DNA of 64,000 bases from Bdellovibrionales bacterium RIFOXYC1_FULL_37_79 (GTDB lineage: Bacteria > Bdellovibrionota > Bacteriovoracia > Bacteriovoracales > Bacteriovoracaceae). The position numbers and the translations under genes are program-made. The notes under the pieces were generated by a model. That model was given only the letters and a program-made list of their open reading frames with translations. It was not told the DNA's origin and did no database searches. Positions within the stretch are counted from its first letter, which is position 1. Each line of letters starts with the position of its first letter. This document shows positions 44,249 through 49,382 of the stretch, one piece after another. The stretch is from the NCBI GenBank assembly GCA_001770015.1, contig MEQB01000001.1, forward strand, positions 62,001 to 126,000, read 5' to 3'.

Positions 44249-45412
44249 TTAATCAAGGTTATCGATTTTATCAGTGACCAAATATGAAGATTGGAAGAAA
44301 TTAGTAATGGGCACTGCAGTTATGTCACCATACTCTTCAGTTCTTTCTCCGCAATAAAGATAATAAAGCTCTGCTGAGGGGTAGTCTTTTTTAAATTCAT
44401 GCAGCCCTTTAAAATCTTTTCGATCTATGGTTTTAGTGGCCTTTGCTTCAATAGCGATCAATCTATCCTGGCCATAAAGAACAAAATCAACTTCGTTACC
44501 ATTTACAGAACGCCAATAATAGATTTCGTATTTTAATTTATAATAATGATTGTATGCCCTTAGTTCCTGCATGACTAAAGTTTCAACTGCAGCTCCCCAG
44601 ATATTCTCGGTTTTATCAAGAAATCCCTTAGGCCTGATTTGTTGAAAAACACCAACATCAAAAAAATAGAATTTTTCATGACTGATTAGTTTACGCTTGG
44701 CCTTTTTGGTGAAGACGGGAAGGAAGAATCCGATTAATAAGTCTTCAAGAATTTCAAAATAATTTTGTATAACTTTTCGGGTGTTGCCACTTTCCCTTGC
44801 AATTTCAGAAAAATTGACAACTTCTCCTTGGGAAAAGGATGCCGTTTCCAGAAATTTTAAAAACCCGGACAAGTTTCTGGTCAGTCCTTCGCTTTGAATT
44901 TCTTCCCGAAGATAGGTATCTACGTAACTTTCAAGATATTCATCAGGGGAAATATTCTTGGTTTTATCATACAAAGTAGGTAGAAATCCTTTTTTAAGGG
45001 CCACTTCTAATTCAAATTTGTCTTTAAGTTCTCTTATTGTGAGTGGAAACAAATGGGCATTTAGTGCACGTCCTGCCAGTAAATTACTATTGGCCTTTTT
45101 TAATTTTCTTGCGGAGGAGCCGCTTAATATGAAGTGTACTTTGTCCTTTTCGATTAAATGATGAACAATATCTAAAAGTTTGGGAATTTTTTGAACTTCA
45201 TCAATTATAACCTCCTTATTTTTAGTCCCGACGATATTTTGAAGTCTTCCAGGATCTTTCATTAGATCGTAGTAATAGGTTGTTTCTAATAAATTAATAT
45301 GGAGGTGGTTGGGAAAATTTTCTTTTAAAAATGTAGTTTTTCCAGTACCTCTTGGGCCAAATAGAAAATAGGTTTGGTTTGTTGTTAGATTCAGTAGGCG
45401 TTTCAGGTTCAT
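44249..45412 (-). CDS. AAA ATPase with DUF4143 domain
   Basis: P-loop ATPase of the AAA_14/DUF4143 family, 387 residues. Walker A is FGPRGTGKTTFL, Walker B VIIDEVQKIP, sensor-like LSGSSARKLKK and GRALNAHLFPLT. The C-terminal DUF4143 part has NEVDFVLYGQDRLIAIEAKAT, a PD-(D/E)xK-like core with E-V-D and E-x-K. Proteins of this family are common as solitary genes and have no agreed function; a DNA-related role is possible. It forms one edge of the accessory island, convergent with rnfA, with a short shared region before the TIGR02147 operon on the other strand. Confidence 0.9.
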   Translation of the reverse strand: MNLKRLLNLTTNQTYFLFGPRGTGKTTFLKENFPNHLHINLLETTYYYDLMKDPGRLQNIVGTKNKEVIIDEVQKIPKLLDIVHHLIEKDKVHFILSGSSARKLKKANSNLLAGRALNAHLFPLTIRELKDKFELEVALKKGFLPTLYDKTKNISPDEYLESYVDTYLREEIQSEGLTRNLSGFLKFLETASFSQGEVVNFSEIARESGNTRKVIQNYFEILEDLLIGFFLPVFTKKAKRKLISHEKFYFFDVGVFQQIRPKGFLDKTENIWGAAVETLVMQELRAYNHYYKLKYEIYYWRSVNGNEVDFVLYGQDRLIAIEAKATKTIDRKDFKGLHEFKKDYPSAELYYLYCGERTEEYGDITAVPITNFFQSSYLVTDKIDNLD

Positions 45413-45531: not shown

Positions 45532-45634
45532 ACTTTTGGGAGTTGGAAAATAATTCATGGTTCATAGCATTGTAACCACTTTGTTTACAACGCTATTGAT
45601 AATAATTGCAAGGCGTGGCATATTTCGCTCCATG

Positions 45635-46420
45635 AAAACAAAGAGCTTCAAAGAATATTTAAACATTGAATTTGCCAGAAGGTGTAAGAAGAATCCCATC
45701 TACTCCTTGCGCGCATTTGCCAGAGATATTCAAATCAGTCATTCATCGCTTTGCCAATTTTTTAAGGGTAAAAGGCAAATGTCCAAAGAGATGATTGAAA
45801 AAGTGGGGCTGGCCCTTTCCTTGTCACCAGATGAAATAAATAAATTTTCTAAAAATGCCAAAGGCGAAATGACGTACGATACCTTGAACGCAGATGAATA
45901 TCATCTGCTTAGTGACTGGTACTATGATGCTATTTTGGAACTTCTATCGACTAAGAATTTTAACTCAGATTTTAACTGGATAGCCAGAAAACTTAATATA
46001 ACCCTTGCCGAAGTAAAGCTTGCCATCCTGAGGCTTCAAAAATTAAATCTCATTCACATTGATGAAGACGGGAACATTTTTGATAAGACTTCGGGATTTA
46101 CGACGACGGCCTGTGATAATGCCTATACCGATTCGGCCAAGAAGAAAAAGCAAAAGCAGCTTTTCAATCTGGCCAAAGATGCAATTGATAAATTTGATGT
46201 TCGGGAGCGCAGTCATTCCGGAGTGACTTTTGCTGTCAGCATGAAAAAATTTGACGAGGCCCGTGCCATGATAAAAAAATTCAGACGTGAATTATCGGAA
46301 CTACTTGAACAAGATCAAGATGACTTGGAGAGTGTTTATCATCTAGCGATTGCCTTGTTTCCCCTTACTATAAATAAAACAAATCAAAGTATATCGGAGG
46401 AGATGTATGAAAAAAATTAA
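45635..46420 (+). CDS. TIGR02147-family regulator
   Basis: A 261-residue protein of a family known mainly from Bdellovibrionota and Fibrobacteres. The N-terminus KSFKEYLNIEFARRCKKNPI then YSLRAFARDIQISHSSLCQFF, FKGKRQMSKEMIEKVGLALSLS and SPDEINKF is the signature helix-turn-helix module; a winged-helix-like section (WIARKLNITLAEVKLAILRLQ, 21 residues) and a C-terminal segment AVSMKKFDEARAMIKKFRREL (21 residues) complete it. It is probably cytoplasmic and DNA-binding. ATG 45635 is preferred; an in-frame ATG at 45557 would add a hydrophobic, family-untypical 26 residues. The next gene begins 14 nt before its stop. Such genes tend to precede genes for exported proteins, as here. Confidence 0.85.
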   Translation, partial: KTKSFKEYLNIEFARRCKKNPIYSLRAFARDIQISHSSLCQFFKGKRQMSKEMIEKVGLALSLSPDEINKFSKNAKGEMTYDTLNADEYHLLSDWYYDAILELLSTKNFNSDFNWIARKLNITLAEVKLAILRLQKLNLIHIDEDGNIFDKTSGFTTTACDNAYTDSAKKKKQKQLFNLAKDAIDKFDVRERSHSGVTFAVSMKKFDEARAMIKKFRRELSELLEQDQDDLESVYHLAIALFPLTINKTNQSISEEMYEKN

Positions 46421-47303
46421 TTTATTATTATGTTTATTATTAACACTTGGAATGTTTCAATCAGCGCTTAGTGCGCCACTGATGGGACGAGAGTCCGATG
46501 GTGAAGAGGGCTTCAAGGAATGGACCTGGGATGATGGGTACTATGAGCCTGCGATTCGGAGGGAGAAGCAAGTATTTTTTTATTCAAATAATCATGTTCA
46601 CAATAATTTTGGAAACATGGCGCGGGGAACTTATTATCGCAATAATGAACACAATGCCTTGTCTCCTTTGGGGGGGATTAATGAATGTGAGTTCATAGGG
46701 CCATTAGAGGAGAAAGAGCTTCAGTGCTATGGTCAACAAGGTAATAAAATAGATAATGATTTTCGTCTATCAAGACATATTTTGTATCAAGTTTTTAAAA
46801 ATGATGAAAAAATGACTCTTGATAGGATTAATCTATGGAAAGAAGTTTTGAATTCGGTAATAAAGAGCATCAAGCCTAACCAGACGGATTCGTCTAGGTT
46901 CGTGGATGTTTATGTTGAACAAAGTGAATCGATTTTTAGGGATCTTAATGTGAATAATCTTTGTATCACTATGGCCGAATATAAAAAACTTCCGGACTAT
47001 AATCCAATCTTGTTTCAATGCGAAGCGATTAGTCGGCATTTAGGGCACGACTTGGATAGTTATGGTAGAAGTTTAAGACAAGAAGAAATGCTAATGGCTT
47101 TTTTTGATTTAGATAAAATTAAAAACTTTTATAAGGATATTATTCGATATCCAGAATTTGGAAATACTACTTTGATTAATAAAAGAAAAGAGAGAATAAA
47201 GCAGGCGGTAGCCTTTATTAAAAAGCTTGGTTATGACAAAGAGACTTTGGATAGTTTTGCACCTTTGACTTATAGTGTGATCAGGGATGAATTCAATAAG
47301 TAA
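46407..47303 (+). CDS. Exported protein of unknown family
   Basis: A 298-residue protein with a clear Sec signal peptide (MKKINLLLCLLLTLGMFQSA, probable cleavage after ALSA). The mature part has two acidic/aromatic stretches near the start (DGEEGFKEWTWDDGYYEP), a Cys pair (ECEFIG, QCYGQQ) and two further Cys (NNLCITMAE, FQCEAI) that may form disulfides. I do not recognise the fold. ATG 46407 has GGAGGAG 4 nt upstream and overlaps the TIGR02147 gene by 14 nt; its own end overlaps the metallopeptidase candidate by 17 nt. The three are one operon. Confidence 0.7.
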   Translation: MKKINLLLCLLLTLGMFQSALSAPLMGRESDGEEGFKEWTWDDGYYEPAIRREKQVFFYSNNHVHNNFGNMARGTYYRNNEHNALSPLGGINECEFIGPLEEKELQCYGQQGNKIDNDFRLSRHILYQVFKNDEKMTLDRINLWKEVLNSVIKSIKPNQTDSSRFVDVYVEQSESIFRDLNVNNLCITMAEYKKLPDYNPILFQCEAISRHLGHDLDSYGRSLRQEEMLMAFFDLDKIKNFYKDIIRYPEFGNTTLINKRKERIKQAVAFIKKLGYDKETLDSFAPLTYSVIRDEFNK

Positions 47304-48228
47304 TAGCGTGATGTTATTAATACTTTGGCTGCTTTGTTGTGGCCAAAGTATTGCTAATATCACCGATGATTATATCGAAAGTATAAGAGCGCATTCTGGG
47401 TTGGAGAGCTCCGAGAGTGCTCTTGTTTTGTATTATACTAAGCTAATTACTAGCGGCAACATTACGATCTTTAAAGAGGAAAGAAGTGAGTTGAATAACC
47501 GGTTAATTGATTTGGAAAATGTTCATCCGAGCTATTTTTTAAAGCGGATTGATAAAAAAATAATCAAAGAATATTTTTTGTATCATGGAAAAAAATTGGA
47601 GCGACTGGATGGAAAAAATCCAGGCAAGAAAGTTTTTAAAAAATACCTGGAAGTTAAAAATGATGAGTTGGAAGTGTCTTTTTTGGAAGATTTGATTCAG
47701 TTTGGACAAGGACGTGGAGTTTATTATTATAAAGAAAACAGCATAGTGGTTGATTTTGTGGAAACCGATTCTCTCATATTGGTTTTAATCCATGAACTGA
47801 CTCATTATTTTGATAAGGAAGCGAATGATGCTCGATTTAATTTACAGGAGCTTTTTTCTGAAGTTAAGTTTTTCGATGAAAAGCAGTTATTTGATAAAAA
47901 TAAAAAAGCAACATTTGGACGTTTCTGGTTTTTGAATACGGTTTATTTAAAGAGAAAATTTCATGAAGCAAAAGCGATCTATAATACCTGCATGATCGTG
48001 GATGAAATGAACAGACTTGGGGTTAAATTGGAATTAAGTGAAAGTGATAAAAGGTTTTATAAAAATGTTTTAAGTAGAAAGAAAAGTTGTAGTCAGTTCG
48101 TCAACGATTTGCTTGGTATTAATGAGCTCTTTGAAATGAGTTTGTTTTGGGATGATGGCACTCCTGAATACAAAGCGGTCACCTCCTATATTTATCAGTG
48201 GTTTAAAGAAAATGGATTTGAGTACTAA
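47287..48228 (+). CDS. Exported putative zinc metallopeptidase (HELTH)
   Basis: A 313-residue protein with an N-terminal signal sequence (SVMLLILWLLCCGQSIAN) and a gluzincin-type HExxH motif: His169-Glu170-Leu-Thr-His173 in VLIHELTHYFDKEAN, preceded by hydrophobic residues as in metallopeptidase helices. A third ligand is not certain; acidic residues follow in FDKEAND and QELFSEVKFFDE. The overall family is unrecognised. ATG 47287 lies 17 nt inside the upstream gene; ATG 47311 just after that gene's stop is an alternative that would shorten the signal sequence. If active it would cleave periplasmic or external substrates. Its paired genes are a TIGR02147 regulator and an unknown exported protein. 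Confidence 0.65.
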   Translation: MNSISNSVMLLILWLLCCGQSIANITDDYIESIRAHSGLESSESALVLYYTKLITSGNITIFKEERSELNNRLIDLENVHPSYFLKRIDKKIIKEYFLYHGKKLERLDGKNPGKKVFKKYLEVKNDELEVSFLEDLIQFGQGRGVYYYKENSIVVDFVETDSLILVLIHELTHYFDKEANDARFNLQELFSEVKFFDEKQLFDKNKKATFGRFWFLNTVYLKRKFHEAKAIYNTCMIVDEMNRLGVKLELSESDKRFYKNVLSRKKSCSQFVNDLLGINELFEMSLFWDDGTPEYKAVTSYIYQWFKENGFEY

Positions 48229-48235
48229 TTCTTGT

Positions 48236-48312
48236 TGTGCATATAAATATCGCTTTAAATATATGCACATGGTATGATGTGCATATATTTAAAAATGTAT
48301 AATTATGCACAT
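48236..48312. promoter_or_regulatory. Two-tier palindromic operator before the Fic-like gene
   Basis: Inner palindrome: 17-bp perfect arms (48254-48270 and 48277-48293) around the 6-bp spacer GGTATG. Two outer half-sites, TGTGCATATA (48236-48245) and TATGCACAT (48304-48312), are mirror-symmetric about the same centre at 48273.5. The GTGCATA cores lie 25, 17 and 25 bp apart. It sits just before the AGAGGA ribosome site of the Fic gene, which encodes an N-terminal helix-turn-helix. Autoregulation is inferred. Confidence 0.6.
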
Positions 48313-48323
48313 AGAGGATTGGT

Positions 48324-49382
48324 ATGGAATTTAACGAGCGAAAGGTCAAAATAATCCAGTTTCTGAAGACTTACGGGGCTATTTCTAACAATGATGCTCA
48401 GTCTATAAATAACGTACATAGAAACACCGCGACCAATGATTTACATAGATTAGTCGAGGAGGGACAACTTTTTGCGAATGGTGCGAAAAAGGGTACAAGT
48501 TATCAGTTCGTTGAAGAACTCATTTTTACCAGCGCTGAAATTGAGTCGGTTTTTCCTAAAAAAGAAAAAAATGAATTAGATAAATATTTTAAAGTTCACG
48601 ATCGAAAGAAGGTTTTTTTTAATAAAGTTTCAGAAAAGGCATTGAAAGCAGATTTTAGCTATTCAATGGATGTATTGCAAGCATTTGATCGAATGAAAAA
48701 ACTCATAGAGGAAAAAAGAAAAAATTTATCTACTGAAGTAAGAAAGAAAAAAAAAGAGAAATTGGTGATTGATCTTTCTTGGGCGTCTTCCAATATTGAG
48801 GGAAACACTTACTCCCTTTTAGAAACGGAGGGCCTGCTTAAATATAACCAAACTGCAAAAGGTAAGGATTTTTTCGATGCACAGATGATTTTAAATCATA
48901 AAGAATCTATTGAATATATTCGCCTGGATCACCATTATAAAAAGATTGATAAACAAAATGTTCTTGAACTGCATCAAATATTAATTAATAATTTAGGAGT
49001 GAATACGGGATTTCGTGAGCATCTTGTTTCGATTGGAAACTCCAGCTTTGTTCCTTGTGATAATAAGTTTCAAATAATATCCTTCTTTGATTTGATGATA
49101 AACAAAATTAATAAATCAGTTCATGTCTTGGAAAAAGCAGTAATCGCCAATTTATTGATAGCATTTTTGCAACCTTTTTCAGATGGGAATAAGCGAACCT
49201 TCCGGATGCTTGGAAATGCTCTATTGCTCTCCTTTGAGTATCTTCCAATTTCGTTTGTAAATACTGCTAAAACAGATTATATCATGGCAATTCTTTATTT
49301 TTACGAGAAACAAAACCCTGATTTTTTCAAACAACTTTTTTTAAATGAACTTAATCATTCGTTTAGGGAATATATTGGATAA
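48324..49382 (+). CDS. Fic-fold protein with HTH domain and catalytic His replaced by Gln
   Basis: A 352-residue protein. Residues 1-65 form a DeoR-like winged helix (VKIIQFLKTYGAISNNDAQS, HRNTATNDLHRLVEEG). Residues about 130-340 are a Fic domain: an inhibitory-helix motif SSNIEGN (155-161; S/T-x3-E-G/N, Glu159) followed by the Fic core LQPFSDGNKRTFRML. In catalytically active Fic enzymes this core starts HPF; here residue 283 is Gln (codon CAA at 49170). The phosphate-binding GNKR is kept. AMPylation is therefore doubtful, and it may act as a ligand-sensing transcription factor. AGAGGA precedes the ATG, and a complex palindrome lies upstream. The possibility of a sequencing or recent loss mutation remains. 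Confidence 0.85.
   Translation: MEFNERKVKIIQFLKTYGAISNNDAQSINNVHRNTATNDLHRLVEEGQLFANGAKKGTSYQFVEELIFTSAEIESVFPKKEKNELDKYFKVHDRKKVFFNKVSEKALKADFSYSMDVLQAFDRMKKLIEEKRKNLSTEVRKKKKEKLVIDLSWASSNIEGNTYSLLETEGLLKYNQTAKGKDFFDAQMILNHKESIEYIRLDHHYKKIDKQNVLELHQILINNLGVNTGFREHLVSIGNSSFVPCDNKFQIISFFDLMINKINKSVHVLEKAVIANLLIAFLQPFSDGNKRTFRMLGNALLLSFEYLPISFVNTAKTDYIMAILYFYEKQNPDFFKQLFLNELNHSFREYIG

What the first reader, a model, noticed from the sequence alone, without database searches (positions are those of the whole stretch)
45635..48228. Three overlapping genes: TIGR02147 regulator, exported unknown, exported HELTH protein
Overlaps of 14 and 17 nt imply coupled translation of a cytosolic DNA-binding protein with two secreted proteins, one carrying a zinc-protease motif. 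This looks like a self-contained, self-regulated export module; a role in predation or envelope attack is a hypothesis.
Basis: inference. Interest (0 to 1): 0.6.

Follow-up and report, generated by a model that had tools for sequence, protein, structure and literature searches.

The report
Self-switching operon exporting zinc-peptidase-like proteins

Summary
Observation confirmed: ORF1 45632-46420 (TIGR02147/DUF4423), ORF2 46407-47303 (exported), ORF3 47287-48228 (exported, HELTH), overlapping by 14 and 17 nt. The partners are not accidental. The triad recurs in three other genomes, two of them in distant families. More widely, TIGR02147 genes are followed within a few nt by an exported protein: 19/35 in this genome against 29/362 background genes; 64/79 in named loci and 26/29 in an independent sample, against 24/223 controls. 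Most partners of the first sample belong to a superfamily absent from Pfam and NCBIfam: signal peptide, GNGG, about 130 residues, then an invariant His-Glu, HExxH in many members. Upstream of ORF1 a 33-nt palindrome abuts a -35/-10 promoter that starts transcription about at the ATG (leaderless). Cassettes share its core and its fixed 11-nt spacing but carry their own arms; ORF1's site is unique in the genome. Best reading: an autoregulated, insulated switch driving exported proteins, the last of which (HExxHxxD plus Glu227, two conserved Cys) is probably an exported gluzincin. Self-containment and self-regulation are well supported. Coupled translation is likely for ORF3, but ORF2 has its own strong ribosome site. 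A role in predation cannot be judged.

The parts
45564..45596 (+). Predicted operator: palindrome ATAGCATTGTAACCA-CTT-TGTTTACAACGCTAT, centre 52 nt before the ORF1 ATG
   Evidence: the repeat finder (15-nt arms, 13/15 complementary); core conserved in the congener G127; same core and spacing at seven other cassettes; unique in the genome within 3 mismatches
45596..45601 (+). -35 element TTGATA
   Evidence: 17-nt spacing to the -10, same position (-35/-36) in 12 of 21 cargo-linked TIGR02147 genes; conserved in G127
45619..45624 (+). -10 element CATATT, 7 nt before the ATG, implying a leaderless transcript
   Evidence: no Shine-Dalgarno before ORF1
45632..46420 (+). ORF1: TIGR02147/DUF4423 regulator (HigA/XRE-like HTH, then winged-helix-like region, then C-terminal domain)
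46396..46402 (+). Shine-Dalgarno GGAGGAG of ORF2, inside the 3' end of ORF1
46407..47303 (+). ORF2: exported protein, fast-evolving middle, conserved ends
46407..46475 (+). ORF2 signal peptide, residues 1-23
   Evidence: and inspection; rule-based, not SignalP
47287..48228 (+). ORF3: exported HExxH protein, predicted gluzincin
47791..47805 (+). HELTH, residues 169-173 of ORF3; H169, E170, H173 and D176 invariant in four genomes
47965..47967 (+). Glu227 of ORF3, invariant, candidate third zinc ligand
   Evidence: conservation shown; ligand role inferred

Best explanation
This is one copy of a regulator-plus-exported-protein cassette. Shown by sequence: a TIGR02147 HTH regulator is encoded on an apparently leaderless transcript whose -35 is abutted by a palindrome with cassette-specific arms; one or two exported proteins follow in overlapping frames; the last, ORF3, carries conserved HExxHxxD, Glu227 and two Cys. 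Inferred: the ORF1 dimer binds the palindrome and controls only its own operon. The site lies just upstream of the -35 rather than over the promoter, which slightly favours autogenous activation (a switch) over repression, roughly 55:45. ORF1 is made sparingly from the leaderless start, ORF2 more strongly from its Shine-Dalgarno, and ORF3 by re-initiation. ORF2 and ORF3 are exported, and ORF3 acts there as a zinc-dependent gluzincin peptidase. The signal sensed by ORF1 and the substrate of ORF3 are unknown; a surface-variable partner role for ORF2 is a guess from its fast evolution.
For: Linkage: 19/35 TIGR02147 genes in the genome have an exported gene within 20 nt downstream, against 29/362 background genes with one within 60 nt (Fisher p = 1e-10); 64/79 named loci against 24/223 control ORFs; 26/29 in an independent sample of HMM hits. 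Triad: same three-gene order in G127, G171 and G269; the four triad regulators are one group on the regulator tree (support 86), and regulator kinship tracks cargo type (22 changes against a shuffled mean of 45.9, 0/200). Operator: CACTTTGT-N11-TTGA has 10 sites in 4.36 Mb, 8 of them at cargo-linked TIGR02147 promoters, reversed-pattern control 0; ACANNNTGT lies upstream of 33/74 regulators against 8/366 control genes, and of 8/21 cargo-linked against 0/15 unlinked in this genome; ORF1's own site is unique. Leaderless: -10 ends 6-7 nt before the ATG, and a Shine-Dalgarno is present at 24/74 regulators against 69/73 cargo starts. ORF3: H169, E170, H173, D176, E227, C235 and C268 invariant across 20-80% identity.
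Against: The ORF3 model is poor (pLDDT 43), so the zincin fold is not shown. ORF3 has no Pfam hit above cut-off, and its profile match to the HExxH cargo covers only the motif helix. No binding, expression or secretion data. Signal peptides were called by a simple rule. Only 8 of 21 cassettes in this genome have the exact ACANNNTGT core in the upstream 95 nt, and the window copy differs by one base (CCANNNTGT). Two of the ten operator-pattern hits are not at TIGR02147 genes. A generic inverted-repeat score is not enriched upstream of TIGR02147 genes.
Confidence: 0.72

Rival explanations
1. ImmR/ImmA-type switch: the HExxH protein is a cytosolic anti-repressor peptidase that cleaves the neighbouring HTH regulator and so induces the operon.
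For: An HTH regulator and an HExxH gene lie in one operon, as in ImmR-ImmA of integrative elements (PMC10233336, found; details from my knowledge of ICEBs1).
Against: The partner proteins carry export signals (64/79), the ORF3 homologues in G171 and G269 have ordinary leaders, most cargo have HE without HExxH, and no ImmA/IrrE Pfam or PADLOC match was found.
Confidence: 0.08
2. Toxin-antitoxin or selfish addiction unit, with ORF1 as a HigA-like autoregulating antitoxin and ORF2/ORF3 as an exported toxin.
For: The nearest solved HTH is antitoxin HigA (E 2e-4); patchy distribution of the triad (4 of 369 genomes) and many paralogues; next to a DUF4143 ATPase and a Fic gene.
Against: Partners are 100-970 aa exported proteins of no known toxin family; no immunity gene is evident; the regulator is 262 aa with an extra DUF4423 domain; regulator and cargo types are co-inherited across a phylum.
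Confidence: 0.08
3. Autorepressed rather than autoactivated operon: the palindrome-bound regulator blocks RNA polymerase at the -35 and is released by a ligand or by export stress. (A variant of the best explanation; its probability overlaps with it.)
For: XRE regulators are commonly autoregulatory on palindromes (abstract of PMC12565409); the palindrome ends on the first base of the -35, so a footprint could cover it.
Against: The palindrome centre is about -52 from the inferred start, outside the core promoter, and the -10 boxes are weak, both more typical of activator-dependent promoters (inference).
Confidence: 0.35
4. Ordinary operon that happens to contain a TIGR02147 gene; the overlaps and the motif mean nothing special.
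For: Close packing is common in this genome (43% of background genes have a same-strand neighbour within 60 nt).
Against: Linkage, motif and operator enrichments, and conservation of the triad.
Confidence: 0.02

Closest known systems
TIGR02147 / Pfam DUF4423 (PF14394) regulators
   Same: ORF1 passes both curated cut-offs; large paralogous expansion (about 36 in this genome)
   Different: Function undescribed: one full-text hit for DUF4423 (Bd3700, raised during growth in prey, PMC12546842) and none for TIGR02147; the exported partner, palindrome and leaderless promoter found here are not in the papers searched
Minigluzincins / selecase MJ1213 (PDB 4qhi)
   Same: Top hit of the GNGG-HE cargo superfamily both by sequence profile (E 0.16) and by fold (E 0.47, prob 0.30), the sequence match lying on the HE helix
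   Different: Both matches are weak; most cargo have HExxY/W/G instead of HExxH, plus an N-terminal GNGG, a signal peptide and conserved Cys
ImmR-ImmA (HTH regulator plus HExxH peptidase operons)
   Same: HTH and HExxH genes adjacent, autoregulation expected
   Different: Here the HExxH protein is exported, and most cargo lack the second His
RRNPP systems (HTH regulator plus overlapping exported pro-peptide)
   Same: HTH regulator followed by an overlapping exported product; many insulated paralogues
   Different: The partner is a folded protein of about 100-970 aa, not a short peptide, and the regulator has DUF4423, not TPRs
HigBA-type toxin-antitoxin operons
   Same: HigA-like HTH, autoregulated short promoter expected
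   Different: Large exported partner, extra regulatory domain, no toxin family

Membership tests
TIGR02147 (ORF1) | Score above curated cut-off | tested here: met
   129 bits against 50; DUF4423 135 against 30
TIGR02147 (ORF1) | N-terminal HTH of Cro/C1 type | tested here: inconclusive
   HTH_26 17.2 bits against cut-off 22; profile of the paralogues matches the HigA HTH at E 2e-4
Gluzincin-type zinc peptidase (ORF3) | HExxH | tested here: met
   H169, E170, H173 invariant in four genomes
Gluzincin-type zinc peptidase (ORF3) | Downstream Glu as third zinc ligand | tested here: inconclusive
   E227 invariant, but its position in the fold is not known
Gluzincin-type zinc peptidase (ORF3) | Zincin fold | tested here: inconclusive
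   AlphaFold2 with two rows, pLDDT 43, pTM 0.31
Gluzincin-type zinc peptidase (ORF3) | Zinc binding and peptidase activity | not testable with these tools
   needs protein
GNGG-HE exported superfamily | GNGG after the signal peptide (ORF2) | tested here: not met
   window has GRESDGEEG; the positional homologue in G171 has SNGG, in G269 TGGN
GNGG-HE exported superfamily | Invariant HE about 130 residues later (ORF2) | tested here: not met
   no HE motif in ORF2
GNGG-HE exported superfamily | Profile match including the HE helix (ORF3) | tested here: inconclusive
   hhalign pairwise E 7e-4 to the HELGHH subfamily, 48 columns only; ORF3 lacks GNGG
Regulator-exported-protein cassette (this work) | Exported gene within 20 nt downstream of TIGR02147 | tested here: met
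   14-nt overlap
Regulator-exported-protein cassette (this work) | Palindrome abutting a leaderless-type promoter | tested here: met
ImmR-ImmA | Cytosolic HExxH peptidase of the ImmA/IrrE family | tested here: not met
   leaders present; no ImmA/IrrE hit
RRNPP | TPR receptor domain and short exported pro-peptide | tested here: not met
   DUF4423 instead; partners of about 100 aa or more
Type II toxin-antitoxin | Known toxin family in the operon, no export signal | tested here: not met

The most novel reading that the evidence does not exclude
TIGR02147 cassettes are a phylum-wide regulatory system of their own: dozens of parallel, mutually insulated, self-activating switches per cell, each with private operator arms around a shared ACANNNTGT core and a leaderless regulator, and each driving a different exported protein, many from a new zincin-derived superfamily (GNGG-HE) in which the catalytic HExxH has often been changed to HExxY/W. 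That would be a stochastic or signal-gated repertoire of surface or secreted effectors in Bdellovibrio-like bacteria.
Probability: 0.35. Interest if true: 0.88.

Novelty: new variant of a known kind. Interest (0 to 1): 0.72.

Why it matters
TIGR02147/DUF4423 regulators are a large paralogous family in Bdellovibrio-like bacteria (about 36 in this genome), yet essentially nothing is published on them. The evidence gives each regulator a predicted target (its own promoter), a predicted DNA site and a partner (the next, exported gene), which turns dozens of 'hypothetical' genes per genome into testable pairs. It also defines an exported protein superfamily absent from Pfam and NCBIfam. If the switches are bistable or prey-triggered, they would be a direct handle on how such bacteria choose which secreted proteins to deploy.

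Tried and rejected
(2) Family-wide alignment A1 was too diverse to seed a collection scan; the closer set A2 worked. A2 was built from cargo-linked paralogues, so its 64/79 is biased; I checked this with the independent HMM-hit sample, which gave 26/29. (3) ORF3 in viral contigs: none; ORF3 against the PDB by profile: only a chance hit. (4) AlphaFold2 of ORF3 with two rows failed (pLDDT 43); the second and last job went to the cargo superfamily. (5) Foldseek of the good cargo model found no confident match in the PDB or viral library. (6) Weak extra ORF3 hits in G047, G068, G121, G195, G349, G353 and G356 were not accepted as triads: no TIGR02147 gene in the stretches inspected. (7) A generic inverted-repeat score upstream of TIGR02147 genes was not enriched over control genes; only the specific core and its spacing are. 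(8) Pfam near-hits of ORF2 and ORF3 (Orbi_VP1, DUF6782) are below cut-off and were not used. (9) 'Defence system' was considered because of the neighbouring DUF4143 and Fic genes; ORF1-3 have no meaningful PADLOC match.

Full report
OBSERVATION. The three frames are present as described, with the start of ORF1 at 45632 rather than 45635. ORF1 is a TIGR02147/DUF4423 protein above both curated cut-offs. ORF2 and ORF3 match no Pfam, NCBIfam or PHROG family above cut-off. The overlaps are 14 and 17 nt. The closest genome with the same genes is Bdellovibrionales bacterium RIFOXYA1_FULL_36_14 (L098; the same stretch as G127, L048), so the window comes from a relative of that organism in the Bdellovibrionota.

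THE TRIAD IS A UNIT. In G127 the triad lies beside the same rnf genes, but the DUF4143 ATPase gene of the window (44249-45412) is absent there and the downstream neighbour differs. A profile search of 369 genomes of the phylum found two more copies in other families: G171 (E 4.5e-17) and G269 (E 0.0013 with the two-row profile). In both, a TIGR02147 gene, an exported protein and the ORF3 homologue follow in the same order with overlapping or close junctions. A second search with the four-row profile added no further triad. The four triad regulators form one group on a tree of 101 regulators. ORF1 and ORF3 are moderately conserved between the two congeners (88% and 80% identity), but ORF2 only 41-45%, with conserved ends and a middle in which nonsynonymous divergence approaches synonymous; its dS is also raised (1.42 against 0.36 and 0.73), so replacement by recombination is as possible as diversifying selection.

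A SYSTEM, NOT ONE OPERON. The genome holds about 36 TIGR02147 genes. In 19 of 35 the next gene is on the same strand within 20 nt and exported, 13 of them overlapping; among 362 background genes, 29 have an exported same-strand neighbour within 60 nt (Fisher p = 1e-10). Of 79 loci from named genomes (nearly all Bdellovibrionota by their titles), 64 have an exported ORF at the junction against 24 of 223 other ORFs in the same stretches; 22 against 4 carry HExxH; 51 against 0 carry a GNGG-type motif just after the signal peptide. That query was built from cargo-linked paralogues, so I repeated the test on 29 of the best TIGR02147 HMM hits of the class: 26 of 29 have an exported, mostly 4-nt overlapping neighbour, here typically with a related GGVDVGNG or TGNP motif.

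THE CARGO SUPERFAMILY. Despite low identity, most GNGG cargo align over their first 150-200 residues with GNGG and a later His-Glu in register (hhalign 1e-15 to 1e-9 between the best-linked subfamilies). In a 30-sequence alignment Asn30, Gly31, His171 and Glu172 are invariant. The helix is HExxH in some subfamilies and HExxY, HExxW or HExxG in others, and HExxH, HExxY and HExxW forms occur within one subfamily. No Pfam or NCBIfam model describes it. AlphaFold2 gives a confident model of the domain (pLDDT 87.5, pTM 0.83). Its best fold match (selecase 4qhi, E 0.47) is also the best sequence-profile match (E 0.16), over the HE helix. Each match alone is weak; that both name the same minigluzincin suggests a divergent zincin. 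ORF2 and ORF3 are not shown to be members: ORF2 lacks both motifs, and ORF3 has only the HExxH helix in common (pairwise E 7e-4). They occupy the cargo positions of the cassette.

ORF3. Across four genomes down to 20% identity the invariant residues include H169, E170, H173, D176, E227, C235 and C268. HExxHxxD followed by a conserved Glu is what a gluzincin would show; two invariant Cys fit an oxidising compartment. The fold itself could not be modelled.

REGULATION. Directly upstream of ORF1 lies a 33-nt palindrome with two mismatched pairs (45564-45596) whose core is unchanged in G127 while the sequence further upstream has diverged. Lining up the cargo-linked regulators of this genome by their start codons shows the same design repeatedly: palindromic arms that differ from cassette to cassette around CACTTTGT, exactly 11 nt to TTGA, 17 nt to a -10-like box, and 6-7 nt to the ATG. 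The pattern CACTTTGT-N11-TTGA occurs ten times in the 4.36-Mb genome, eight of them at cargo-linked TIGR02147 promoters including this one, with no hits for the reversed pattern; adding a -10 TA leaves five, all at cassettes. Across named genomes ACANNNTGT lies within 95 nt upstream of 33 of 74 regulators against 8 of 366 control genes, and in this genome upstream of 8 of 21 cargo-linked against 0 of 15 unlinked TIGR02147 genes. ORF1's exact palindrome has no second site in the genome even with three mismatches. A generic inverted-repeat score, in contrast, is not enriched, so the claim rests on the core, the spacing and the placement.

HOW IT PROBABLY WORKS. Steps shown by sequence: linkage, operator-promoter layout, leaderless-type start, export signals, conserved HExxH site. 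Steps inferred: ORF1 dimers bind the palindrome and control this operon alone; because the site abuts the -35 from upstream, activation is somewhat more likely than repression; the regulator is made sparingly from the leaderless start; ORF2 initiates at its own strong Shine-Dalgarno (GGAGGAG), so the first overlap need not couple translation; ORF3 has no Shine-Dalgarno in any of the four genomes and probably depends on re-initiation after ORF2. Regulator kinship tracks cargo type (22 changes against 45.9 shuffled), so regulator and cargo are inherited together, as expected if they work as pairs.

KNOWN OR NEW. Autoregulated HTH operons with palindromes are a known kind (for XRE regulators, abstract of PMC12565409). 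HTH plus HExxH pairs are known from ImmR-ImmA (PMC10233336; my own knowledge for the mechanism), but there the peptidase is cytosolic. The combination of a TIGR02147 regulator, private operator, leaderless promoter and overlapping exported partner, repeated many times per genome, was not found in the papers searched: no paper names TIGR02147, and one mentions DUF4423, for Bd3700, raised during growth inside prey. Curators may have noted the neighbourhood without publishing it. I therefore file it as a new variant of a known kind.

LIMITS. What the cassettes do in the life of these bacteria, and whether it concerns prey, is open.

Noticed in passing
window 48233-48312 and 48324-49382: A Fic-domain gene with an N-terminal HTH-like region starts 95 nt after ORF3; the gap holds two 38-nt direct repeats, each with ATGTGCATA/TATGCACAT-type inverted arms, a likely operator of the Fic gene.
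   Followed up: partly
window 44249-45412 (-): A DUF4143/AAA_14 ATPase gene (PADLOC candidate PDC-S01) lies between the rnf genes and the triad here but is absent at the same place in G127; similar-looking ATPase genes sit next to other TIGR02147 genes (beside those of L016, L030, L037).
   Followed up: no
window 46407-47303: ORF2 is far more diverged between congeners than its neighbours (dN 0.54 against 0.06 and 0.13), with conserved first 45 and last 55 residues and raised dS: recombination or diversifying selection.
   Followed up: partly
L069-L097: Classical TIGR02147 genes of the class are followed by mostly small exported proteins with GGVDVGNG/H or TETGNP motifs after the leader, apparently a second cargo class.
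   Followed up: partly
L013, L019, L028, L029, L031: Several cassettes carry two or three exported genes in a row, some clearly duplicated cargo (L013, L019), and in L029 the GNGG and HE motifs sit in two overlapping genes, recalling ORF2/ORF3.
   Followed up: no
L016, L024: Two GNGG-HE cargo proteins have weak MORN_2 repeat matches in their C-terminal parts.
   Followed up: no
G000:C11:305124, G000:C52:97559: Two operator-pattern hits (CACTTTGT-N11-TTGA) not at TIGR02147 genes; not examined further.
   Followed up: no
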